Below, in pieces: positions 4,021 to 42,654 of a stretch of 64,000 bases of DNA. Numbering within the stretch: the stretch's first letter is position 1; the number at the start of each line of letters is the position of its first letter. The stretch comes from Neoscytalidium dimidiatum (Eukaryota > Ascomycota > Dothideomycetes > Botryosphaeriales > Botryosphaeriaceae). The notes below the pieces were generated by a model, which saw nothing but the letters and a program-made list of their open reading frames with translations, did no database searches and was not told where the DNA came from. The stretch is taken from NCBI GenBank assembly GCA_037367355.1, contig CM074703.1, positions 3,286,001 to 3,350,000 of the forward strand. Direction: 5' to 3'. Position numbers and translations under genes: made by a program.

Positions 4021-5994
4021 CTATACAAGGAACACGCGGCGAATTGGCGCCTTCTCAATGCAACGCTTGACCTCTCCACTTTGTTCAACGATAACCTGAC
4101 CGAGCCTCAGGAAGTGATCGGGTAGCTCTGGAGACGCCGGGCGCAGGATCACGCAGATATGCCTCCCGTCCGTCTCGAAGCCCAGAGTCCTGTCCGGATG
4201 CTCCCACACGAGCGGGACGCAATACACGACTTCGTCTCGCAACGCACTATCATCCTGGTCCATGATAGCTACCCCGCAAGGATCAGTCCCGTCACAGAAC
4301 CGTATCTGCCGCACCGTCTTGGGCATATCCAACGCATCCAACTCATCGTCCGACAGCGCAACGATGAGCGAGGGGACGAGCCTCGCGTCCATCTCCAGCT
4401 TCCTCCCAGCATCCCGCACCGCAATCGAGACGCACGGCTCCAGCTTCGCGTCGGTCGTCGACGCCCCGCCCTCGAAGATATCCACCGCCCCCATGGTCGA
4501 CGCCCACGACCACGAGGGTATGTCGCCCAGCTCCGCCGGCCTCTCCAGCCACTCCATCTGGCCGCGCGACCAGGCCAGGTTCCCCGCCAGCGTGCTCTCC
4601 CACAGGCCGAACAGGTACGCGCCGCGCGCCGGCGGCGCCCTGCCGAGCTCCGACGCCACGCCCGCCAGCGCGACCAGCTTGTCGCGCGCGTACGTCAGCC
4701 GCCGCCGCGAGTAGTCGCGCGCGATCGACGACCACAGCCGCCGCTGCCACATGACGCCGCCGAACGTCGAGCCGTCGTGCGCCAGCAGGCCCCCCTCCCC
4801 CGCGGACCCGGGCTCCCGGCAGCCCCAGACGAGGCTCGCGCGCGTGAAGTACGCGATGCGCCGCGCCAGCGTCGACTCCTGCGCGCACCACGCCCGCGTG
4901 CCGAGCACGCTGCGCTCCGGGTCGGCGTCGCGCGCGCGCGCGGGCGCGGCCCGGGGCGTCGAGGTACGGCAGCGTGGCGGAGAGGGCGCCGCCGCCGCCG
5001 AGCGAGCGGAAGATGCCCGCGGTCGGGTCGGGTGAGTCGGCGGCGGCGATGACGAGCTGGGCGGTCTGGTAGACGGCGGCCATGCGCGCGGCCTCGCGCG
5101 CCCAGTCGGCGGCGTCGTCCTGCACGATGCAGAGGCTGTCGATCCAGAGGTAGCGCAGGCCGACGTGGCGGGCGATGCGGATGGCGTCGCGGTAGGTCCG
5201 GGGGAGCTGGCTTTCGCGCATGCCGGCGGCGTGGGACGCGATCGTCTGCGCGGTTGTGCGCGGGGGCAGCTTGTCCGGAGGCCCCCAGCAGTAGCTCAGG
5301 GCGGCGAAGTGGCCGCGCAGGCCGTTCGCGATGACCAGGGAGATGGTGTCGGCTCCGGCGCTGAGGTCGAGGACGCGGGTCGGAAGGGCGGACGCGGCTT
5401 CTCCTTGGATGAGTTCTCCTCCGTACGTCTTGCGGCATTCGGAATGGTTGTCCAGGCAAAATGAATATAGGTTCTTGAGCAAGGACAGCGCCTCGGGAGA
5501 GCCAGAGTTGTTCAGGTAGGGACCGGATCTGAATTGGGTGGATGTCGCGGCTGGGCTTCCTACGTACGGGATCAGAGAGGGTCTCTGCAAGAGCTGCCTG
5601 GGGCTTGCCAACCTGGGTCGGCATAGAAGCGGACATCTCGATCGAAAACATCGCCGGCGAAGTTGTTCCCTTTGTGTTTGTAGCGGACGGTGAGTGCAGG
5701 GGCAAAGGGCGGCGTCAGATGTCCGAATGCCTTCGACTTGTGTTGGCCTCTGTTTGCAAATGCGACCAGCTCGATTCTCGGCGGATCAGGCAGCTTTCCG
5801 TGCTTTGCGAACTCTTCTTCAAGGCTGATGCCTTCTTCAATGAAGACGTCGCGCACGCAGGCGCACAGAGCACATGATGCGTACTTCAAGTCCGGGATGG
5901 CGTAGAATTCGTTCCCGGAATCGCGGAGCTGGTTGCAGGCCTTTTCGAGGACGGCGGTGCACTTTTGGCACAGGGCGGTCTCCTTCGGGCTCAT
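4021..5994 (-). CDS. HET-domain (heterokaryon incompatibility) protein, frameshifted copy
   Basis: Start ATG 5994-5992; intron 5612-5560 (53 nt); stop TAG at 4021-4023. The N-terminal exon has paired cysteines (LCQKC, SCALC), as in many HET proteins. The second exon contains the hallmark HET blocks: AALSYCWG, LPRTYRDAI, YLWIDSLCIVQDD, AVYQTAQLVIAA, and later TRAWCAQESTLARRIAYFT, followed by IPSWSWAS in the C-terminal half. HET proteins trigger cell death when genetically different hyphae fuse. The frame is interrupted near 4930-4960 inside a run of CG dinucleotides: the upstream frame reads arginine/alanine-rich nonsense, while the frame one base off continues the HET sequence (DADPERSVLGTRAW). 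The exon sum is 3n+1, so adding one CG unit (or removing one base) restores it. Either this is a real disabling slippage or an assembly error. Apart from this, the gene looks intact at about 640 codons. Confidence 0.85.
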
Positions 5995-28387: not shown

Positions 28388-31002
28388 ATGACTCGTTTTT
28401 ACTCCCTATTGCCGCTCGCGGCTCTTCTCGCTCTTTTCGATAGATCCCAGGCAAGAGCCATCAACGACGAATTATTAGACCAGTATGACTATATCAGTAT
28501 GTGTTTCTGCCAAGCAGCATTGCTAAATGACTGTTGCTAATTCAAACTCTTAGTTGTCGGTGGAGGAGCCAGCGGCCTCACGGTCGCCAACAGGCTTACC
28601 GAGGACCCTTCAGTGACTGTCCTCGTTCTCGAGGCAGGCCCCGTTGATGAAGATGAGGAGTGGATGCGGGTACCTTTCTTCGTTGGAAACGACCCTTCAC
28701 CACCAGCAGGCTCGCTCTCCGGCCACTTGCAGTACGACTGGAACCTTGGAACGGAAGCTCAGATCTACCTCGATGGAAAGACCAGACACTACCCGCTTGG
28801 CCGTGGTGTTGGTGGAGGCACTCTTATCAATGGCATGCTTTGGAACAGAGGAAACATTGGCGACTACGATGACTGGGCCACGCTGATTGGTGACGAGGGA
28901 TGGAGCTGGCAGTCCATGATGCAGTATTTCCAAAGAGTAGGACCAAGAGCCAAGCCATTGGAGACATATGCTAACCCCCCGATCAGAGCGAGACATTCAC
29001 CGCCGACTACTCGCCCGAAGATGCCGAGCGCTACCAGATTCACAGTGACCCAGCCGTCCACGGCGGCGCGGTTGGCGGCGTCAATGTCAGCTACCAGGGC
29101 CACTTCTACGCCGGCACTCACCACTTCTACAACGGACTGAACGAGCTTGGCGTGCCGACCGAGGGTGACCCTAACGCTGGCAACACTGCTGGAGCCTCCT
29201 TCCTGCCCATGTCCATTGACCCCGTCACGAAGACCCGTGCCGATGCTCGCAGGACTCACTACGACCCCCACGCTTCACGTGACAACTTGTACATCTCCAG
29301 CGGCCAGTTTGTGACTCGTCTCATTTGGGATGATGAGGCTGGGTGTGGCGCTGGTAATAACGGAACCGGCATCAACAACCCTGGTGGCGCCTCGAATGGG
29401 ACTATTCCGGGCGTTGTTCCCGGCAACGGTACGGCCCCTGGCACGATTCCGGAAAACGGCACGGGCGGATCCACTCCCGTGGGCGGAAGCAATCAAACAA
29501 ATCCTTCGGACCCCACGAACCCCTTCAGCCCTGTCAGCTCGAGCGTCGATGGCGAATCGTCCAACGGCGCATCTGGCCACGGTTCTGGATCAGGCTCTAA
29601 CTCTGGATCTGGATCTGGCTCGGGTTCGGGCTACGGCTCTGGTTGGTCCAATATTACAATTCCCTCTTGGAGCAACGGCACTGCTCCTGCCACTACCAGT
29701 GGCGACAGCAGTGACGGTACTGGCAGACACTGGGGTCTCAAGCTCGATGATGTTGAGGGTGGTCTGTCGAACGGCCTTGGTGTCTTCAACTTGTTCCCCG
29801 TCGGACAGCTGTTCGACTTGCTCAAGAGTTCCGCTCCGGCGGACTGGGACCCCAGCTCTGGCGTTGAGGTCCACGAGGTGACTACCACCTCCTTCGACTG
29901 CAACTGCCAGGAGAACGCCTGCTCTGCTGGCTCCTCGAAGAAGAAGCGGAACGCCAAGAAGAACAAGAGGCAGCAGACCCAGTGCAAGCTCCGCGTTGGT
30001 GGTGTTGAATTTGCTGCGGATGCCAGTGCTCAGCGCCGCGTGATTACCGCCAAGCGCGAGGTTATTCTCGCCGCGGGCGCAGTCCACACACCTCTGATCC
30101 TCCAGCAGTCTGGCGTTGGCGATTCCGACCTGCTCTCCTCCTTCAACATTGAAACGCGCCTTGACCTGCCCGGCGTTGGCAACAACTACCAAGATCACTA
30201 CATGTTGGCCTCCAACAACCACTTCGCCGCGAACGACGACACCCCGGTCGCCTACGCCACCAACACAGACACCAACCGCAACCTATTCTGGAACGAGCAC
30301 ACTGGTCCCTGGACTGCCGGCCCGCCCAACGGCGTCGCATTTCCCTCGCTCAAGGACATGACGGACAACTTCACCGCCGTGCTCAACTGGGCCGAGTCGC
30401 TGACTGCTGAGGAGCACCTACTCGACGGCCTCGACGACACCATCGTGGCCGGCTACGAGCGCCAGAAGGCCCTCCTCGTTGCGGCGCTCAACGACGCGAC
30501 GCGCGGGCAGTTCGAGATCCTCAACAACAACGGCGGCTCCTTCACCTACTCGCTCATGAAGCCCTTCTCGCGCGGGCAGATCCGCATCCGGTCGGCGGAC
30601 CCGTTCGACACGCCCGTCATCGACCCGCGCTACGGCAGCAACCCGGTCGACCTCGCGTACATGATGGAGGCCATGCGCTTCAACCACCGCCTCGTGCACA
30701 CCGACGCCCTCGCCGCCCTCCAGCCCGAGGAGAATTACCCCACCGCCGAGCAGGTCGCCGACGACGCCCGCCTGCTGACCCTCATCAAGGGCGGCCTCTT
30801 CACCGAGTACCACCCCACCGGCACCGCGTCCATGCTGCCGCTCGAGGAGGGCGGCGTCGTCGACGCCAGCCTGACCGTGTACGGCACGCAGAACCTGCGC
30901 GTCGTGGACAGCAGCGCCATGCCGCTCATCCCCGCCGCCCACCTGCAGGCCTGCGTCTACGCTTTCGCGGAGAAGGCCGCGGACTTGATCAGGGGCAACT
31001 AG
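28388..31002 (+). CDS. Secreted GMC oxidoreductase with a long low-complexity insert
   Basis: Three exons: 28388-28496, 28554-28936, 28987-31002; 835 residues. A signal peptide (RFYSLLPLAALLALFDRS) leads into the FAD-binding Rossmann motif IVGGGASGLTVANRL, the GMC signature region RGVGGGTLINGMLWNRG, and later AKREVILAAGAVHTPLILQQSG, YHPTGTASM and PAAHLQACVYAFAEK, where the two catalytic histidines of the family lie. Family members oxidise alcohols or sugars and yield hydrogen peroxide. Usual length is about 600; the surplus is an insertion of roughly 218 residues (about 279-497) rich in Gly, Asn, Ser and Thr, with many N-glycosylation sequons, a cysteine-rich patch (CNCQENAC) and a lysine-rich patch (KKKRNAKKNKR). 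It sits between VTRLIWDDE and CKLRVGGVEF, a surface position in the fold. Confidence 0.9.
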
Positions 31003-32813
31003 GGGTTTCCTTTTTCCGGCTTGGGTAGACGGGTAAATTAGTGGAGGAGTAACGGAGCGGGTTCTTTCTCTTTTCTTTTTTTTTTTTTTAAAGATCGAGG
31101 GGCCCTTGCGTTTCATGACTTGCATGCCCGTGTTTTTGTAGATACCAATGTTTAATTGCACTCTTTTGCCTACAAGCAGAAATACGTGTGGTCATGAGCT
31201 CATTGGAGTTCGGCATTGTGTTAAATTACCAATTCGGATTTAGTGCATATCTCTTGCGAGGCCGCGTCGGCCTGTGTTTTGATCTTCTTTCCATCCCTTT
31301 CCCGACAGCAAGCAGGGTGGTCTTACTTGCTTAGTGTTCGCTCTCCCTAGTCTGTGTGAGACACGTTTCGTACGCATACGTTGTTTCAGTGTCTTGGCAA
31401 ACCAGAATAATGGCGTCTCTGGTATATGTGATGGTATTCAGGTGGTGTTGCAAGCCAAGAACCGGCCGTATGTAGTCTAAACAAGCTCAGAAACAGCGAC
31501 ACCTCTGCACTGGGCGAGACTGTTCCAAATTGCTTTCTCTGAAACATTTGCAGTTGGAACATGAGGAGCCAAATTTAGTACTAAAGATGAACGCCGCTTA
31601 TATTATGTGTTGTTTGTGACAGTTTTATGGCTTGGCGGTGCCTCGTCCGATGAGGTGATGTGCGACTGAAGCATCATATGTTTATTCTTTTTATGGGTGC
31701 GGAGTGGGTCATTACTACCGTTCAAAATTCTGACGTGTGTTCGTGGTAGATTAAAGTTGGTCACAGGTAGATGACAGCTGGCCTGAGACGAACGTGACGG
31801 GGCTGGATGCGATCACATGTTGTACGCCTGCATGCTGTACGGTTGAATCTTCCTCGCTGTACCTGCGCGGACTTCAGCATTCGGATGTGCGCAGTCCTAC
31901 TACGGTAGTTAGTTTTTTTTTTTTTTTTCCACCTGTTACCCATGATGAGTAACCTCAGCATTCCTTTCGACCGACAAGCACGGACTTGATCCCTGCGAAG
32001 ATAGGAAGGAAAGCTCGTCCGGACTATCAAAAAATGTCTATACTAATAGTATATCTCTTATCTATCCAGAAAAAGAAAAGTTAAGATGCTCTAATGGACG
32101 GGAAAAAATAGCTATTGTAGTAGGGAAAAGAAAGATGCACTGCTAGCAGCGCCTTTGCTTCATTTACCATGTTATCTTACGGCACAACTAAGACTAGGGT
32201 TGAAATTCCCATTAAATCGGCAGTTCAAGGAATTTCGGTTTTTCTCAAGGTATAGCAGAAGGAAACATAGAACAAGGCGGAGGGATTACTCCATGTGCGC
32301 AGAATGTAATCGCGAGGAGCACCGTGCTCATACGTCATACGTCCCACAGAATACGCGGTACGCTGCACATTATACGCTGTACGTGTTCAAAAAAGGCAAA
32401 TGGGTGCGAACCTGACAGCGCCACAATAAGGGGTAAATCAGCATGGAAAAGGAGGATTCTGCCCTCATGATAGTAATTCAATGTGTGCATGCTTTCAATA
32501 CCTGCTGTTTCTCTTTAAGTTTTTAAGAGTATCTCAAGTATAATAATGGTCATTCTTTCACAGCTGTGATGCTCGCAGTCTTGACTACGGGACGCGAGGA
32601 GTATTTTGCGGAGGAATTAGTCTAACGCGCAAATGCTAAGATAAAGATTTCTTGTTTCCCCATTGGCTCTGGAGGATTCGTTGCTGCAGGAAGCAAGCCA
32701 GGTTGCTGATCCTTCGGCAAGGCGCTGATCCAGGAAAATCTACGCTCTCCAGTATGTAAAGGAGTATAGACATTTCAAATGGGTTTTCGATCCCAGATTG
32801 ACTGCATCTCAGC
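31003..32813. other. AT-rich intergenic stretch of about 1.8 kb
   Basis: Contains T-runs at about 31077-31090 and 31914-31929 and no recognisable coding sequence. Presumably the GMC 3' UTR, spacer and the GH1 promoter. Confidence 0.5.
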
Positions 32814-34771
32814 ATGGTCTCCTTACATCTCCTCCTCGTCGGGGCTACTCTAGTCCATGCTCAGCAAGTCTACGTTTCTACCAGTGGCTCTTCTATAAGG
32901 CCGCAATGCAGTTCTGCTGCGGCGGAATTTCCGAGCACGTCAAACTTCTCATTTACGCAGTCCGAGACGATAAGGACTGCGACAGCCGCCCCAACTCAAA
33001 CGTTCCCCACATACGGTCTTCCCTATGCATCGATAAGCCCGTCGTTTTCCAATCTCTCGACAACGACCTGGGGAAACTGGTCTCCGAACACCACAGCTGT
33101 TCCCAGCACTGACACTGGTCCATACGGTCAAATGTCCTGGTCCGCCTTGTGGAATGGTCTTCCATTGACCACATTCTCTCGCGGCCTTTACTCTACAACT
33201 GTGTCGCCGACTCCCGTTCCTTCAAGTTCCCTTGTTCTCCCACCTCCTCTCTACTTCGGCCCACAGGACTGCTACGAATTCCCTTCAGCTTTCATGTTCG
33301 GCGTAGCTGGCGCTGCAGCTCAAGTCGAAGGCGCTGTCGCTGACGAAGGCCGGGCTCCCACGACAGCAGACGTGCGAGATCAACTCATGGCGCTTGGAGG
33401 ACCAGCAGTCGAAGCTTATTTTCCGAACATTACGGCAGACTACACGGCTGTTGAGCACTACTGGCTATACAAGCAGGATATTACGCGCTTGGCGGCAATG
33501 GGTGTGAAGTACTATTCGTTTAGTATCTCATGGGCGAGGATCTTGCCATTTGCTCTACCGGAGACTCCAGTAAATCTGCAGGCCTTGCAACATTATGATG
33601 ACTTGATCAACTTTGCCATCTCAAAGGGTGTCGAGCCCGTCATCACGTTGCTGCACGGCGATGCGCCTCTGGTCTTCTTCGGCGGAGCCGACGAATACCT
33701 GGAGCAATTGACGGTCAGGAACTACTTCGGACACTTCAATGAGGGCTACCAGAATACTACATTCCTCGAGGCATTCGTCAACTATGGGAAGATCGTCATG
33801 GCGCATTTCGCCGACCGCGTGCCCTTGTGGGTGACGGTCAACGAGCCGCAGAATGGTTGCATCAGTGGCCCATCATTCGACCATTTAATCAAAGCGCATG
33901 CACGACTGTACCATCTTTACAAAGAGCAGCTGCATGGTAAAGGAAGTGTGACCATGAAGATGAGCGGAGCACCCGCCGTACCGCAGGATCCGAGAAATGA
34001 ATCACACGTTGCCGCAGTAGAGCACTACAACGGCCTGAATTTTGGAGTTTTCCTCGATCCCTTAGTTTTCGGCAAAGATTACCCGGACGCGTTCAAGATG
34101 ACGATACAAGACTACGTGCCGCTAACCGCCGCGGATCTCAATTACCTCAAAGACACGATGGGTCAGTTAGACCTCCTTCAGGGATAGATTCCCAACGCTA
34201 TAAGTAACACTTCACAGACATCGTATCCATGGACAGCTACTCCATCCCTACCGTCTTCCCTCTCGAAAACATCGACATCGCCACCTGCGCCGCCGACAAC
34301 GCCACAACCAACACCAACTACCCCTCCTGCGTCGGCTCCACGCAAGCCACCACCAACGGCTGGCTCATGGGCTACCACGAAGCATACTTCATGTGGGCGA
34401 CCCCGACGTATCTCCGCACCGCGCTGTCCTACATCTGGACCACCTACCGCAAGCCCGTCGCCATCACCGAGTTCGGCTTCCCCCGCAGCACCGCCTACGC
34501 GCTGGACGTCCCCTCCATCCAGTTCGACGTGCTGCGATCGCAGTACTATTTGAGCTACATGACAGAGGTACTGAAGGCTATTTGGGAGGATGGAGTGGAC
34601 GTGGTGGGCGCGTTCGCGTGGAGCTGGGTCGATAATTGGGAGTGGGGCACGTACGGGTACGAGTTTGGGTTGCAGTACAATGATCGAGAGACGCAGGAGA
34701 GGCACTTTAAGCGGAGCTTCTTTGATTTGGCGGATTTTGTGGAGTCGAGGAGGATGAAGGTGGCAAAGTAA
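32814..34771 (+). CDS. GH1 family beta-glucosidase, secreted, with Ser/Thr-rich N-terminus
   Basis: Two exons, 32814-34161 and 34218-34771; 633 residues. A short signal peptide (MVSLHLLLVGATLVHA) is followed by about 140 residues rich in Ser/Thr/Pro with several N-glycosylation sites, then the catalytic barrel: FMFGVAGAAAQVEGAV, YYSFSISWARILP, VTVNEPQNG with the acid/base glutamate at about residue 344, PVAITEFGFP with the nucleophile glutamate at about residue 534, and AFAWSWVDNWEWGTYGYEFG. Both catalytic carboxylates of clan GH-A are therefore present. The nucleophile motif is TEFG, not the common TENG. The enzyme should hydrolyse beta-glucosides outside the cell. The extended N-terminus is not part of the catalytic domain and may be heavily O-glycosylated. 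Confidence 0.88.
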
Positions 34772-35695: not shown

Positions 35696-36717
35696 TTACG
35701 CAGCAGTGGTCATGTCGGAATCGAAACCTTTCTGGATTTGAGCTGCCACACTCCTTTCCGGATGCGACTCCAAATTGGTAGCCCGGATTCTCTGTCTCAC
35801 AGTCAGTCAGCAAACATTAACACAACCATAATACTCACCGCGTATGGGCGGTCGATCCCCACCATATTGACCCAGTCCCGCTCATCCATATCCTCAAACC
35901 GCACAACCTCCGGCCCACTGCCGAAGGCGACACCCTCCCTAAATACCAACGGCCGCGGCTTCGACCAGGGCCACCCGAACAGCGCCAATCCGGTGCTCGT
36001 CTTCGCCCTGATCTGCACCGTCGCTTTGAACGCCGCCGCCCCGTCGTCCCTCTGCACGAGCACCGCCGCCCGCAGCTCGCGCGGCACGCCGTCTCCCTGC
36101 TGCTTGTTCTCGGTCAGCGTCCAGACGACCTCGTCGAAGCGCTCGCAGCCATGCTCGTCGGCCTCGTCGCTCGTGAAAGCCTCGCCTATGACTTCGGTGC
36201 GGAATTCCTTGCCGTATACGACGTCTTTCGCGGCGGTCGCGTCGACGCCGACCTGGAAGGGGACCGGGGCGGCGGTCAGGGCGGCCGAAGCGGTAATGCT
36301 GCGAGTCGTTGTGACTTCTCCGACCTGGACGCCGCTGTGAATCCGTTTCGGTCCGTACTGCGGGACGACTGGCCAGGCATTCTCGCTGATATTGTCGGGA
36401 AGGAAGTTGACGCAGACTTCGGCCCTGGAGAAGCGACTGGCGCTTTGCGGCTCGAAGGAGAAGCGGAAGTGGAAGATGATCAGCGTTGCCGGTTTTCCGT
36501 GGAAGGTGCCGTGGGAGAGATGTACGACGTCGCCTGACGCGTGCCAGCGACGCACTTTGTTGCGGATGGCGCGAGGAGTAGCTTCAGTGATGTCTTTCGG
36601 CGTTCGTACGCCGAGCGTCAGGTCTGATAAGTCGATTTCCAGCTCAGTGCTACTGGAGTACTCGCTCTTGAATTTGAGGTCTTCATCGTTGGCGTTGGGT
36701 GGCGTTACGGGATCCAT
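35696..36717 (-). CDS. Uncharacterised beta-rich protein, divergent partner of the CHAT gene
   Basis: Two exons, 36717-35839 and 35791-35696, joined over a 47-nt intron; 324 residues. The second exon was chosen because it keeps phase and gives a clean stop (TAA 35698-35696). No signal peptide or membrane segment is visible, so it should be intracellular. The sequence alternates polar and hydrophobic residues in beta-like stretches: VVHLSHGTFHGKPATLIIFHF, EVCVNFLPDN, VVWTLTENKQQGDGVP, LRAAVLVQRDDG, FKATVQIRAKT. I do not recognise a named domain, although the pattern of paired beta segments around WxLxENxxxxxGxP recurs in uncharacterised fungal proteins. Its start lies 470 bp from the divergent CHAT gene. 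A substrate or effector role for that protease is inference. Confidence 0.7.
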
Positions 36718-37187
36718 ATTGAAATTGGGTGAGGTTTGACAACCGTTGCAAAATTACTGTGAGGAGCTAAATAAACCAATATTTGTCGTCAATAACAGCC
36801 CAGGTCCAGACTCGGCTACGTTTGCCTTTCTCGCGTGTGGCTGCAACCAATTCTTGTTGCAGCTCTTGGCGAGAGCAGGATGGCTGATACGCACCCAATG
36901 ATGTGGATGATCTGCTGTGTAGCTTGGTGTGGCCGTCGCAGCTGAAAAATTGCCAAGATGCAACAGAAAATACCCTTTGAATGAACAGAGAAGAACGCAG
37001 CCAACGCCTGATTGCAGAAAGATTGCATAAGTCACGCATCAGCTGCGGCTGAGATCCCAAAACATAGTGCTGCGGGTATCCAAAATTCCCCGATCACCCC
37101 GCCTTTCGCCTTCTTCAAACCTCAAATCTTTGTCCACTTAGCTTTTGTAAAACACCAGTTGCATTGGTGACTTCAATCGCAGTTCAA
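36718..37187. promoter_or_regulatory. Shared divergent promoter region of the CHAT pair
   Basis: 470 bp between the two divergent start codons with no other gene, so both promoters must lie here. No specific operator motif was recognised. Confidence 0.5.
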
Positions 37188-40100
37188 ATGGATCCACGCA
37201 AAGCCAAAATCAAGCAGGCCCAGCGCCTTCGCGATCTCGGCTTCTACAACAATGCCTCAGTTCTCTACGAACAACTGGCTACACCAGAACTGGAGAATTG
37301 CTCTATCTTTTTGGAATGGGCCGCTATGAAAGTTGAGCAAGGTCTGATTGGCCAGTGCCGCGACAAGCTGGATGCGCTGGAAAAACTCCTGCAGCATGAA
37401 AGCGCAGATCAAACCTACAAAGCCATATTCGAAATGCTCTACGCGACGGTTACCATCATCGGAGAGGTTGCATTCTCCGAACCCATGAAGAAGCTAGAAC
37501 GAGTCTTCCATGAAGAGCTGGAAGGGAGGACGGTTGAGGAGTATGATAAAAGAGCTGTAAGTGAAATCTGATCTCTACAAGGATGCCTCTACAAAAGCTG
37601 AGCATGTGGCTCGATTCAGGTTACCATCGTCGTGCTCTATCATCTTATGTGCCGCCTCAGAACAGTCTACGGATATATGCCTGAAAACCCCATCCTCACT
37701 GTTGAACATTCTATCCTCGGCGAGCTCTGTCGTTACCTCATCAAAGAACGCCGCTATGCCGAAGCTCTTCGAGTTTCCCGAATTCTATATAATAGAGAAG
37801 ATAGACTGAACGCAGTCAACAAGAGTCAAATGCTGAGGGAAATACTCAACTGTCCGGACGTCCCAGAGCTTGTGCGTGCGGAGACGCTCTTGGAATATGC
37901 CGAGGATCTACAGCAGGTCAGCTTCGATAACGAGTGGATCCGATTCATGGAGAAAGCAGACGAGGTTTATCGCAGTGCCGGTCACGCTTATGGCTCATTA
38001 TTGATCAAGCTCCATCTACTTGAGAAAAGGAAGCTGACGGTAGATGACCATCAAGCAGCCGTGGAAATGCTCCGCATCAAGAAGAGCATGGAAGAAGTCG
38101 GTTACTGGACAGGAGGCCTTGACGCTTTGCGAACCTACTCACAGTTCCAATTGGATCGCTTAGGAAGGCTGGAAGAGGACATGTTAGTAGAAATCGACTC
38201 CGAGCTGCTGCGATATCGATCAATTTGCAAGAATAATTTTGATTGGATTTCCCAGACAAACCTCAACTTCACCCGCTGGCAGCTTAGCGGCGCGAACATT
38301 GGCAAAGGTCTTCACGTCCTCGAGCAGATTTACGATGAGATGGCGGACATTGAGGCGCCTTTCTTGCTCGCAGACACGCTCGGGAAACTGCATGAGGCGT
38401 ACATCAAGATCGGTGATGAAGAGCGGGCTGCAGCTTGCCTTACACGACGACCGGAGGTTCTTCCTCGCAAGATGGTCGTTCTACTCGGTGTAGATCCCTT
38501 CTACAAGAGCTTGAAAGAGGGCACGGACACTCCTGACTTGGAGTCTTCCCTTGCGTCCCTTCAGAATGAGATACGCATAGCTATGGAGATGATCCAGATG
38601 ACAACATCCCTTCAAGAAAGAGGGAATGAAGTGATGCGGTTGTCGCACATCTCAAATCTCTACCTGATGGCATTGAACAGGCGTGGAATCGAAAACACTC
38701 GGCGCCTGGTCCAGCCTTGCCTGGAAGCAGTCCATGGAGCTTGCCAGCATCTAGACAACAGCCAGGCCAATCTTTGGACTAGTAATGCCTTGCAGACAGA
38801 GGCCCGTCTTCTGTTCATGGAGGCATATCTCAATGAAGACAAGACGATGAAAGTCAGCCTCATGCAGGAATCCTTACAGATCCATGAAAGGACATTTACC
38901 AGGTTTAAGTCCCTGAGAAGGAAATTCGACATGGCCATGGCGAAGCAGAACATTGCGTTGTGCTACGATTCCACTTGGCAATTCAACGCTATGCCATCCC
39001 AATCCAACGACTTCTCCAGAGCAGCCGCTAATTATGCGGATGCCAAAGAGCTGCTTGCAAGTAGCGGACAGCTCGCAACTCAACAAATGGTGATCCGGAC
39101 CGGTATCCAATTCTGGTTCCGAGGACTTCAAAACAATGTTGACGTGAAGACGTGGTTCGGTCTCAGCTCCGTGTCCCCAATGGAAACACTGATGAAGTAT
39201 ATCGAAGAGTCCGAGAGGCTCTCAACCATTGAACGTAACGACATGGCCGCGCTAGATCCGGAACGCGCTATTCTCGCGAAGCAAGCCTTGCGCAAAGATC
39301 CGGCTGTCCAATCTGTGTACGACATTGCCATCAAAGCTTTCGCCCGAATTGATGACTATGAGAACGTATGGAAGTGGGTCCAGAAATCGAAAGCGCGCAG
39401 CGTCTCAGACATGCTTGCCCTGGGCGTGAACTTGCCCGCTGATCTTGTGGCAGAGATCGATGCGGACCCAGAGCTGCGTCCTCTGCTGGATCAGGAGTGG
39501 AGTCTGCTACAGAAAATTGAAGGCGCAGAAGCATCGCAGAAAGTCTACCTGAGAAAGCAGGTGGATGCGCTCCGCAAGAAAATGCGAAAACATCCCACGC
39601 TCGGGAAAATCCTAGATCTCCGGGAAGGCGAACCAATCACTCTGTCTGCATTACGCAGTCTGGGCAACCGGATGGTGGCTGGGCGTCGGATTCTTTTTGT
39701 TGACTGGCTGACCATTAACGATCATGTCTGCTGCCTGATAGCCTCTAATGAGGGCGTGAGAGGTTATCTTGTTGGAATGTCGACCGAGGATTGTAACAGG
39801 TGGAAGGAGAAGTACCTGCGCCCTAAGGTTACGGAAGTTGTTGAAGACGGGGATGAATCAGCGGAGGGGAAAGTATGCAATACAGGAAAAGCAAAGGAAG
39901 TAGAAGACAAAAACCACAGGAACACTAAAGCGCGAGTCATAGTAGAATATCCGTTGGCCGAAGACGACATGGATCCTCTTCGTGAGATTTCCAAGCTGAT
40001 ACAACCGGTGATCGGAGAGAGCAAAGACGCAGACTTGTTCGTGTTCTGCCCTAGCGGAGTCGTACATGGGATTCCCCTTCACGCAGCTACAGTTGCCGAG

Positions 40101-40859
40101 GATTCCGATACTTCACTCATCGAGCGTAATCCAGTGGTCTATACCAGCAGCATGACTACTTTCGAGCATTGTATGTCACGACAAAAGCAACGCAGGCATG
40201 GTACAGCCAGCTTTGTCGCGGTATTCGAAGAGACAGTACATGGGCCCCTCGACGACCGAGGCCGAGTCTTTCGAGACCGGGTCTATGCGTCAGTCAGAGG
40301 CATGGCAGCAAAAGCGACTACATCCACTATCCTTATTGGAGAGGATGCTTCTCCGACAGCCGTCTCGAAAGCCTTTGGAGCAGACTTCGTGTACTTTTAC
40401 GGTCACTGCTCTGTTGATGAAGAGAACATGCTTAGACAAGGTCTGCTTCTACACCCCCAAATGGATGCCTCCGGGAAGCTCGAATCACCCAAATTTACCG
40501 CCTCCGACATGTTTAGCACTCCAATCCAGCCCTCAAATGTCGTGCTCATGGCATGTGCCTCAGCATCAGAGTCCCACGCTCCTGGAGATGAGCCACTCGG
40601 TATTACCACGGCGCTTCTATGTGCCGGAGCTTCTTCTGTTACAGGCACTATGTGGGCGGTCGACGTGCGGACAGCCTTGGCATTTACAGATAAGTTCCAT
40701 AGCACTTTTTCGGAGGAACTGCTGCGTGAACCATCCTCAGTGGACTTGGCTGTTGTTGTTCAGGAAACAATTTGCAGGATGAAAAAACGAAAAGACAGCA
40801 AGACTCCATTCCACTGGGCATCTTTCTTATTGCATGGGTCCTGGCTCGTAGAGAAGTAA
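37188..40859 (+). CDS. TPR-like helical protein with C-terminal CHAT (caspase-like) domain
   Basis: Two exons, 37188-37556 and 37620-40859 (63-nt intron); 1202 residues. The first 780 residues are helical with repeat-like segments (QAQRLRDLGFYNNASVLYEQL, YLIKERRYAEALRVSRILY, GKLHEAYIKIGDEERAA), as in TPR arrays. The C-terminal 400 residues form a CHAT domain: RRILFVDWLTIND, DLFVFCPSGVVHGIPLHAA, GADFVYFYGHCSVDEEN with the predicted catalytic histidine at about 1052, and NVVLMACASASES with the predicted catalytic cysteine at about 1102, then GITTALLCAGASSVTGTMW and an HWASFLLHG end. CHAT proteases are caspase/separase relatives; fungal members are linked to nonself responses. The first ATG compatible with the frame was used. 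Both dyad residues are present, so it should be active. Confidence 0.9.
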
Positions 40860-41299: not shown

Positions 41300-41807
41300 T
41301 AACTCGTAACCCCGTGATTGGGGCTAGCACTTCTAGAGCTTCTAGAGCTTCCGGAGGTTCTAGAGGGTCTAGACGTTCCGTAACGCGCGTATACGGACTA
41401 TCTTTATACGGTCGTAATTCTTAAAGTTTATCTTAGTACGTTGTTCGTACTAGCGCTAGCGCCGCGTAGCTACTACTACCGCCTACGTATAGAATTTCGC
41501 TTAATCGTTCGGATTTTACCTTCTTTTTTAGTAGCGTTAATAGCTATAGAGAGAGAGCTTTAGCGAATTCTACGTATACAGACTATAAGAAAAGAAATAA
41601 GTATTTTCTTAGAAATCGTCCATACGCGCGTACGAAATAACTAGACTTTCTAGAAGTACTAGAATCTCTAGAATCTCTAGAATCTCTAGAATCTCTAGAA
41701 TCTCTAGAAGCTCTAGAAGCTCTAGAAGCTCTTTAGTCGAGCCGGACTATAAATTAATGTTATAGTCCCTACGTTCTAACGCGGGTCGACTCGGGGTCGA
41801 CAACTTA
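41300..41807. repeat. RIP-like degenerate relic, TpA-rich
   Basis: The segment is strikingly rich in TA dinucleotides and in CGCG/ACGCGCGT words but has very few CA or TG dinucleotides, the signature left by repeat-induced point mutation of a former repeat. It includes AGAATCTCT/AGAAGCTCT tandem repeats and a small perfect hairpin (GGACTATAA, 7-base loop, TTATAGTCC) at about 41747-41772. No coding capacity remains, so the original element cannot be named. Confidence 0.65.
41661..41732 (+). repeat. Eight-copy 9-bp tandem repeat (AGAATCTCT/AGAAGCTCT)
   Basis: Five copies of AGAATCTCT followed by three copies of AGAAGCTCT without spacer. Related TCTAGAG words occur at 41329-41375. Confidence 0.9.
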
Positions 41808-41819
41808 GTGGCTTGGCGC

Positions 41820-42654
41820 TCGGGGAATTTTGCTGATGTGACCGTCGGAGACACTCTTCATTCGGCTGCACGCGCCCGCTGCCCGAAGAACATACCAACA
41901 GGCGTGGCTCGCCGTGAGTACGCTGTGCATCTCCGCGATGTTACCATGGCTATGCTTGGCATTTCGCATACGAAGAAAACCCGTGTAGGCGATGACTTCG
42001 TGCGAGGAGTCAGCGGTGGCGAGCGGAAGCGTATCACCATTGCGGAGGTAGCGGTAGGAGAGCACTACCAGGGCTTTGTCGAACCGCGCAAGATGGACCA
42101 ATCAAATGGCCAGAGGCTGAAGTCGCCGCTTACTCTCTCGTACTCGGAACAAATGCGTCTGACACTTTGGCGCAGCTGGGTTTTGTTGAAGTCGGAACCC
42201 AACATCTCAGCGGCAATGTTGATCACCAACGTCATCGAAAGTTTGATCATCAGCAGGTTGTAGAACAACCTGCCTGAAAATACCACAAGCCGTTTTTGCC
42301 GTGGAATGTTTTTTTCTTCATTATCATCATCAACGCATTTGGCAAATGCTCCTGTCCGTTGCACGGCCAACGAGATGCTCAGTTTCAGCGCCTCGAATGG
42401 TACCACGTGCGCCGAGTCTATGGGACCTTACATCAACAGCCATGGTGGCTAACTTGTAGATGGTGCTGCGAGAGAATGCGAATACTGCCCGACGTCTGAC
42501 AAGAATGTGTTTCTGCAGGGAATAAACGTCTCCTTTTGGCGTCGGTGGAGGAACTTCGGTTTTTTGTGTGTACTGTGTCTTCAACATAGCGGCTAAGCTC
42601 GGGCTCTACTGGTTATTCAGAGTGCCGAAGAAGAGCAGGACGAAGAAAGCATGA
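41820..42654 (+). pseudogene. PDR-type ABC transporter remnant with internal deletion
   Basis: The remnant starts inside the first nucleotide-binding domain ([25 protein letters not shown]) and includes the ABC signature [14 protein letters not shown]. It then jumps straight into the membrane part ([31 protein letters not shown]). After a stop at 42261-42263 it continues in shifted frames with NLPENTTS and FFFFIIINAF, then ANEMLSFSASNGTTCAE, CEYCPTSDKNVFLQGINVS and RWRNFGF, and finally NIAAKLGLYWLFRVPKK with a stop at 42652-42654. That order matches the N-terminal ATPase, first transmembrane block and C-terminal CDR end of pleiotropic drug-resistance transporters. A full gene would be about 4.4 kb, so most of it is gone. 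Proximity to the RIP-like relic suggests loss by repeat-associated decay. Confidence 0.85.

What the first reader, a model, noticed from the sequence alone, without database searches (positions are those of the whole stretch)
35696..40859. CHAT protease gene with a divergent unknown partner: possible two-gene cell-death or defence module
A 1202-residue helical/TPR-like CHAT protein with an intact His/Cys dyad (about H1052 and C1102) shares a 470-bp promoter region with a gene for a cytosolic, beta-rich 324-residue protein of unknown function. In fungi, proteases and their pore-forming or other effectors (for example gasdermin-like proteins) are often encoded as neighbours, and CHAT proteins are caspase relatives. 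The partner could be the cleaved effector or an inhibitor. This link is inference from position and family only.
Basis: partly seen in the sequence, partly recalled or inferred. Interest (0 to 1): 0.75.

Follow-up and report, generated by a model that had tools for sequence, protein, structure and literature searches.

The report
Fungal protease paired with pore-former candidate
A fungal caspase-like protease gene sits head to head with a gene for an undescribed protein that may punch holes in membranes, and a second copy of that protein sits the same way beside a different kind of protease, so this looks like a self-destruct switch built from new parts.

The parts
37188..40859 (+). CHAT protease gene, 2 exons (37188-37556, 37620-40859), 1202 aa; helical N-terminal part, CHAT at C-terminus
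39996..40838 (+). CHAT protease domain, residues 916-1196; catalytic His1052 codon 40404-40406, Cys1102 codon 40554-40556
   Evidence: Pfam PF12770 E 7.4e-31; genome search over cut-off; residue numbers; conservation.
35696..36717 (-). Partner gene, 2 exons (36717-35839, 35791-35696), 324 aa, candidate executioner
   Evidence: homologs; paralog beside S8 protease.
36718..37187 (.). 470-bp shared intergenic region between the divergent start codons
   Evidence: In the C5 pair the gap is 467 bp with the start codons taken at L009 3373 and 3841 (290 bp if an earlier in-frame Met of the protease frame is used).
35920..36552 (-). Partner residues 56-266, the stretch that aligns with the alpha-hemolysin/leukocidin fold in both models
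36133..36387 (-). Partner residues 111-195, low-confidence segment lying where hemolysins carry the stem hairpin; holds a conserved TSDEAD motif (182-187)
   Evidence: pLDDT below 50; conservation. Position as stem is inference; the amphipathicity test did not support it.
35696..35919 (-). Partner residues 267-324, C-terminal tail beyond the hemolysin-like part; candidate inhibitory tail
   Evidence: Outside the aligned range of the hemolysin-type rows; its last part is variable among orthologs. Role is inference.

Best explanation
This is a two-gene, protease-controlled cell-death module of the kind known for fungal gasdermins, with a different executioner. The large CHAT protein is a sensor: its helical N-terminal part is thought to perceive non-self or damage and to switch on the caspase-like His/Cys protease at its C-terminus. 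The neighbouring 324-aa cytosolic protein is kept inactive, perhaps by its C-terminal tail or by a locked central hairpin. Cleavage by the protease lets it oligomerise into a hemolysin-like beta-barrel pore in the cell's own membranes and kills the cell. Shown here: the two genes, the CHAT domain with its catalytic residues, and the family's position beside proteases of two unrelated clans. Strongly suggested: co-location in one other source, from matching contig data. Likely: the hemolysin-like fold. Inferred: sensing, cleavage, pore formation, death.
For: Two members of the partner family were found in the genome. One is head to head with CHAT at 470 bp, the other head to head with a gene stretch carrying ankyrin repeats and Peptidase S8. 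Homology of the two members: an HMM built without the paralog finds it at 51.5 bits, E 1e-14 over the loci held; hhalign 96.8%, E 2e-10. S8 and CHAT are the protease classes that flank fungal gasdermins, about 63% and 19% (PMC10197012 passages), and a TPR-bearing CHAT protease activates a gasdermin in P. anserina (PMC12881547, section 21). Two gasdermin-S8 pairs are present here. Partner ortholog P0001 and CHAT ortholog P0006 show the same source, the same number of contigs (3) and the same longest contig, 8768 bp. Fold: 50 of 50 rows shown for model 2 and 46 of 50 for model 1 are hemolysin/leukocidin/cytolysin-type toxins, by title (entries titled only 'Structure-based discovery ... S. aureus' by recall).
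Against: Both AlphaFold models are weak (mean pLDDT 42.7 and 48.0), made from 4 and 6 sequences, and share input, so they are not independent. In one search, 17 of the 50 rows have an rmsd of 10 A or more. Foldseek's best hit is a Thermus protein, TTHA1873, not a toxin, and only 27 of its 50 shown rows are hemolysin-type. No Pfam Leukocidin match at E up to 10. Residues 111-195 are not significantly amphipathic in 6 of 7 members. The C5 ankyrin and S8 stretches lie in separate frames that I take as exons of one gene without modelling the introns, and the genome search reads one stop inside its S8 match, so that gene's integrity is not proven. Linkage elsewhere rests on contig bookkeeping in one case; N. 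parvum and M. phaseolina could not be tested. No expression, cleavage or toxicity data.
Confidence: 0.5

Rival explanations
1. The partner is the protease's substrate but not a pore former: a beta-sandwich signalling, lectin-like or adaptor protein released or destroyed by cleavage.
For: Several other beta-sandwich proteins appear in the Foldseek list, including its top hit TTHA1873. The stem-like segment is not amphipathic in 6 of 7 members. Model confidence is low.
Confidence: 0.2
2. The partner is an inhibitor of its protease, as in a toxin-antitoxin pair, and the protease is the killer.
For: A divergent layout with a shared intergenic region would allow balanced expression.
Against: One homologous family accompanies proteases of two unrelated clans, CHAT and S8. 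A common inhibitor is less expected than a common substrate type, although a shared non-catalytic contact is possible. No inhibitor family matches in Pfam.
Confidence: 0.1
3. The partner is a very divergent gasdermin.
For: Same genomic slot, similar length (the RCD-1 chains have 261 and 248 residues), beta-rich, no secretion signal.
Against: hhalign to the two gasdermins of this genome: probability 0.1, paralog 0.24. No PDB hit for partner or profiles and no gasdermin among the 7 weak hits of the paralog (best E 0.13), whereas a true gasdermin from this genome finds RCD-1-1 at E 9.5e-6. The profiles compared are shallow (2 and 7 sequences).
Confidence: 0.08
4. The pair is an anti-predator store: a cytoplasmic nematotoxin precursor with its activating protease, like the leukocidin-like P450139 of Coprinopsis cinerea.
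For: P450139 is a cytoplasmic fungal protein with HHpred similarity to leukocidins over 75 residues and with nematotoxicity (PMC6434838 passages).
Against: The passages read mention no protease neighbour for P450139. Sensor-like protease architectures (ankyrin; large helical) fit intracellular perception better.
Confidence: 0.08
5. Coincidental neighbours without functional link.
For: Only one genome was open to direct inspection.
Against: 17 S8 loci and 3 CHAT loci give 40 neighbour slots among an assumed 13,000 genes (recalled order of magnitude), a chance of about 0.3% that the second, unselected family member also borders one. Matching contig data for orthologs.
Confidence: 0.04

Closest known systems
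Fungal gasdermin (fGSDM) two-gene clusters with S8 (Q2L) or CHAT proteases, e.g. the P. anserina TPR-CHAT/gasdermin pair
   Same: Adjacent genes, one a large multidomain S8 or CHAT protease, the other a small protein of about 300 aa without secretion signal.
   Different: The small protein is not detectably homologous to gasdermin.
Small beta-barrel pore-forming toxins of the alpha-hemolysin/leukocidin family
   Same: Best VIA-align match of both partner models, 132-183 residues aligned in the hemolysin-type rows.
   Different: No sequence match to Pfam Leukocidin, no signal-peptide-like N-terminus, an extra C-terminal tail, a protease neighbour, apparently intracellular.
Coprinopsis cinerea P450139, a leukocidin-like cytoplasmic nematotoxin
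   Same: A fungal, cytoplasmic protein with leukocidin-like similarity (PMC6434838 passages).
   Different: Known as an anti-nematode toxin; no protease partner in the passages read; sequence not compared here.
A. fumigatus hetB, a CHAT protein acting in heterokaryon incompatibility
   Same: A large fungal CHAT protein (1,327 residues) in a cell-death locus (PMC11138114 passages).
   Different: Its target is unknown; the alternate allele encodes a 149-residue protein without annotated domains.

Membership tests
CHAT peptidases | CHAT domain over the curated cut-off with His/Cys dyad | tested here: met
   108.1 bits against cut-off 24; H1052 and C1102; His in 6 of 6 and Cys in 5 of 5 aligned sequences that reach it.
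Fungal protease-effector two-gene clusters | S8 or CHAT protease gene beside a small candidate-effector gene | tested here: met
   Window pair and C5 pair.
Fungal protease-effector two-gene clusters | Linkage conserved between species | tested here: inconclusive
   One case by identical source, contig count and contig length; two other species not testable.
Fungal protease-effector two-gene clusters | Protease cleaves and activates the effector | not testable with these tools
   Needs biochemistry.
Fungal gasdermins (RCD-1/HET-Q1) | Sequence homology to gasdermin | tested here: not met
   0 PDB hits for partner and profiles at E up to 10; hhalign 0.1 and 0.24; positive control E 9.5e-6.
Fungal gasdermins (RCD-1/HET-Q1) | Gasdermin-N fold | tested here: inconclusive
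   Low-confidence models; fold searches show at most 50 rows each and cannot exclude it.
Alpha-hemolysin/leukocidin small beta-PFTs | Leukocidin sequence profile (PF07968) | tested here: not met
   Not among the families matched at E up to 10 by the 7 family members. The genome search found none either, but nothing rang in its controls.
Alpha-hemolysin/leukocidin small beta-PFTs | Hemolysin cap/rim beta-sandwich fold | tested here: inconclusive
Alpha-hemolysin/leukocidin small beta-PFTs | Amphipathic stem hairpin | tested here: not met
   Beta-moment of the 111-195 region no better than shuffles in 6 of 7 (p 0.51-0.79); paralog p 0.034 with its peak outside the proposed hairpin. Crude test.
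Alpha-hemolysin/leukocidin small beta-PFTs | Secreted (signal peptide) | tested here: not met
   No strongly hydrophobic 9-residue run in the first 50 residues of 7 of 7 (maximum mean hydropathy 0.78).
Alpha-hemolysin/leukocidin small beta-PFTs | Oligomeric membrane pore | not testable with these tools
   Needs biochemistry.

The most novel reading that the evidence does not exclude
Fungi own a second class of protease-triggered executioner beside gasdermins: intracellular proteins of alpha-hemolysin/leukocidin fold, each encoded head to head with a caspase-like CHAT or an ankyrin-subtilisin sensor protease, so that a fold known from secreted bacterial toxins serves as a self-destruct pore.
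Probability: 0.4. Interest if true: 0.88.

Novelty: new variant of a known kind. Interest (0 to 1): 0.7.

Why it matters
Fungal protease-effector clusters are known with gasdermins as effectors. An unrelated effector family in the same slot, beside both protease classes that gasdermins use, would show that the protease sensor is the constant part and the executioner is exchangeable. It would also put a hemolysin-type fold, known from bacterial virulence, into fungal self/non-self cell death, and it gives a concrete pair to test in yeast.

Tried and rejected
Gasdermin identity of the partner: rejected by sequence. The Pfam gasdermin model finds nothing in this genome, yet fungal gasdermins are present, so that model is blind here. 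No gasdermin chain is among the 50 rows shown or; this is no exclusion.

Searches that led nowhere: partner profile in viral contigs and genome contigs, no confirmed relative; Leukocidin family in the own genome, nothing rang anywhere, controls included; PADLOC for P0006, P0001, P0004 and the paralog, only one weak methyltransferase match to the paralog (E 0.0039), taken as chance. Amphipathic hairpin test: negative in 6 of 7. The three CHAT matches outside the window fall in two loci, C1 (L010) and C11 (L011); neither has a partner-family neighbour in the fetched 9.5 kb.

Literature: searches (9 of 9 papers listed; 20 of 90; 20 of 72; 20 of 24; 15 of 39; 4 of 4; 10 of 5,309) showed, in listings and abstract starts, no paper on a hemolysin-type effector in fungal protease clusters; the lists are capped. 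Clave et al. 2022 (PMC8851545) is not held and nothing of it was read; I rely on two reviews, of which I saw passages and one section.

A comparison with sequences of staphylococcal or clostridial toxins was not made, because I fetched no toxin as a yardstick; only PDB titles and scores were returned.
Full report
Observation. The two genes are as described. The CHAT gene has one intron and encodes 1202 aa with the CHAT domain at 916-1196; His1052 and Cys1102 sit in the expected motifs. The partner has one intron near its 3' end and encodes 324 aa. The start codons are 470 bp apart. The genome is 43.8 Mb in 40 contigs, and the pair lies about 121 kb from a contig end.

The partner family. One search of the protein database gave 3 homologs at 57-62% identity. 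A profile search, in which only the 8000 best candidates were scored, added 2 at 41% (source jgi). The partner itself has no Pfam match up to E 10; three weak matches to unrelated families occur among the seven members, best E 0.013. No PDB sequence matches the partner or its profiles. Within the genome, a search with relative P0004 found the partner and one other locus, C5:3477047-3477547, E 8.5e-6, and the reverse search returned the window gene, E 4.7e-6. An HMM built without the C5 protein still detects it at 51.5 bits, E 1e-14, over the loci held. hhalign gives 96.8% and E 2e-10 over 188 columns.

The second pair. The C5 protein's gene is head to head with a stretch on the opposite strand that carries ankyrin repeats (E 9.9e-11) and Peptidase S8 (E 3e-13 for the C-terminal half; the N-terminal half at E 0.07, below cut-off). 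These lie in separate open frames, which I take as exons of one gene without having modelled its introns; the genome search reads one stop inside its S8 match. Asp, His and Ser triad motifs are visible in the frames (IGLIDDG, GFHGT, SGSSVA; motif names recalled). With the start codons taken at L009 3373 and 3841 the gap is 467 bp; an earlier in-frame Met of the protease frame would make it 290 bp. CHAT (cysteine) and S8 (serine) are unrelated proteases, so the pair was not simply duplicated whole; the constant element is the small protein beside a protease. Seventeen S8 loci (23 matches) and three CHAT loci (4 matches) were found. With an assumed 13,000 genes, the chance that the unselected second member borders one of them is about 0.3%.

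Linkage elsewhere. Partner ortholog P0001 and CHAT ortholog P0006 carry identical bookkeeping: source lgn, 3 contigs, longest 8768 bp. They therefore very probably lie on the same contigs. For N. parvum and M. phaseolina the records do not allow the test. The CHAT hits at 30% identity (P0009, P0010) are on contigs of other lengths than P0004 and P0005, so nothing can be said there.

Known kin. Reviews state that about 80% of fungal gasdermin genes lie beside protease genes, about 63% S8 and 19% CHAT (PMC10197012, passages), with WD40, ANK or TPR repeats on many of the proteases, and that a TPR-bearing CHAT protease activates a gasdermin in P. anserina (PMC12881547, passages and section 21). 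This genome has such pairs. A 293-aa protein on C4 matches N. crassa RCD-1-1 (8jyz_A, E 9.5e-6) beside a DUF7580-S8 gene. A second gasdermin on C1 (37% identity) has an S8 match about 860 bp away on the same strand. These serve as positive controls for both method and layout. The window partner and its paralog do not match these gasdermins.

Mechanism. The layout, the two protease classes and the precedent argue that the protease is a sensor and the small protein its substrate and executioner. If the fold is right, the executioner would be a cytosolic hemolysin-like pore former, held inactive until cleaved. No signal-peptide-like stretch is present in 7 of 7 members. A conserved TSDEAD motif (partner 182-187) is present in the partner and 3 of 3 close orthologs, and as TSDEA in P0004/P0005, but is absent from the S8-paired paralog. 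It is a candidate protease-specific segment; this is inference. A fungal precedent for a cytoplasmic leukocidin-like protein is C. cinerea P450139, a nematotoxin (PMC6434838 passages). A CHAT gene also underlies hetB incompatibility in A. fumigatus (PMC11138114 passages).

Verdict. A protease-effector module is well supported (about 0.75 by my judgement); the complete mechanism with a hemolysin-type executioner about 0.5. The papers listed by searches (capped lists) gave no report of such an effector in fungal protease clusters.

Noticed in passing
L011:2281-8018 (own genome C11): Another CHAT gene is followed on the same strand by a caspase-like gene (Peptidase_C14 E 5.4e-6 over cut-off; ORFs): two caspase-type proteases side by side.
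   Followed up: partly
L038:2109-5327 (own genome C4) and L019/L040 (C1): Two gasdermin-S8 pairs whose gasdermins the Pfam gasdermin model misses.
   Followed up: yes
window 4343-5785 (-): HET-domain gene (Pfam HET E 4e-27), about 30 kb from the pair.
   Followed up: no
window 41330-42263: AT-richer stretch with 9-bp tandem repeats (CTAGAATCT, about 10 copies at 41641-41732), followed by an ABC-transporter-like fragment at 41766-42263 (E 1.5e-4, below cut-off), perhaps a decayed copy.
   Followed up: partly
window 28975-34771 (+): GMC oxidoreductase and a GH1 beta-glucosidase beside the pair; ordinary neighbours.
   Followed up: partly
L041 (own genome C5:2975586): Very weak gasdermin-like match (E 0.02; 0.0024 with a 2-sequence profile over the loci held); probably chance.
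   Followed up: no
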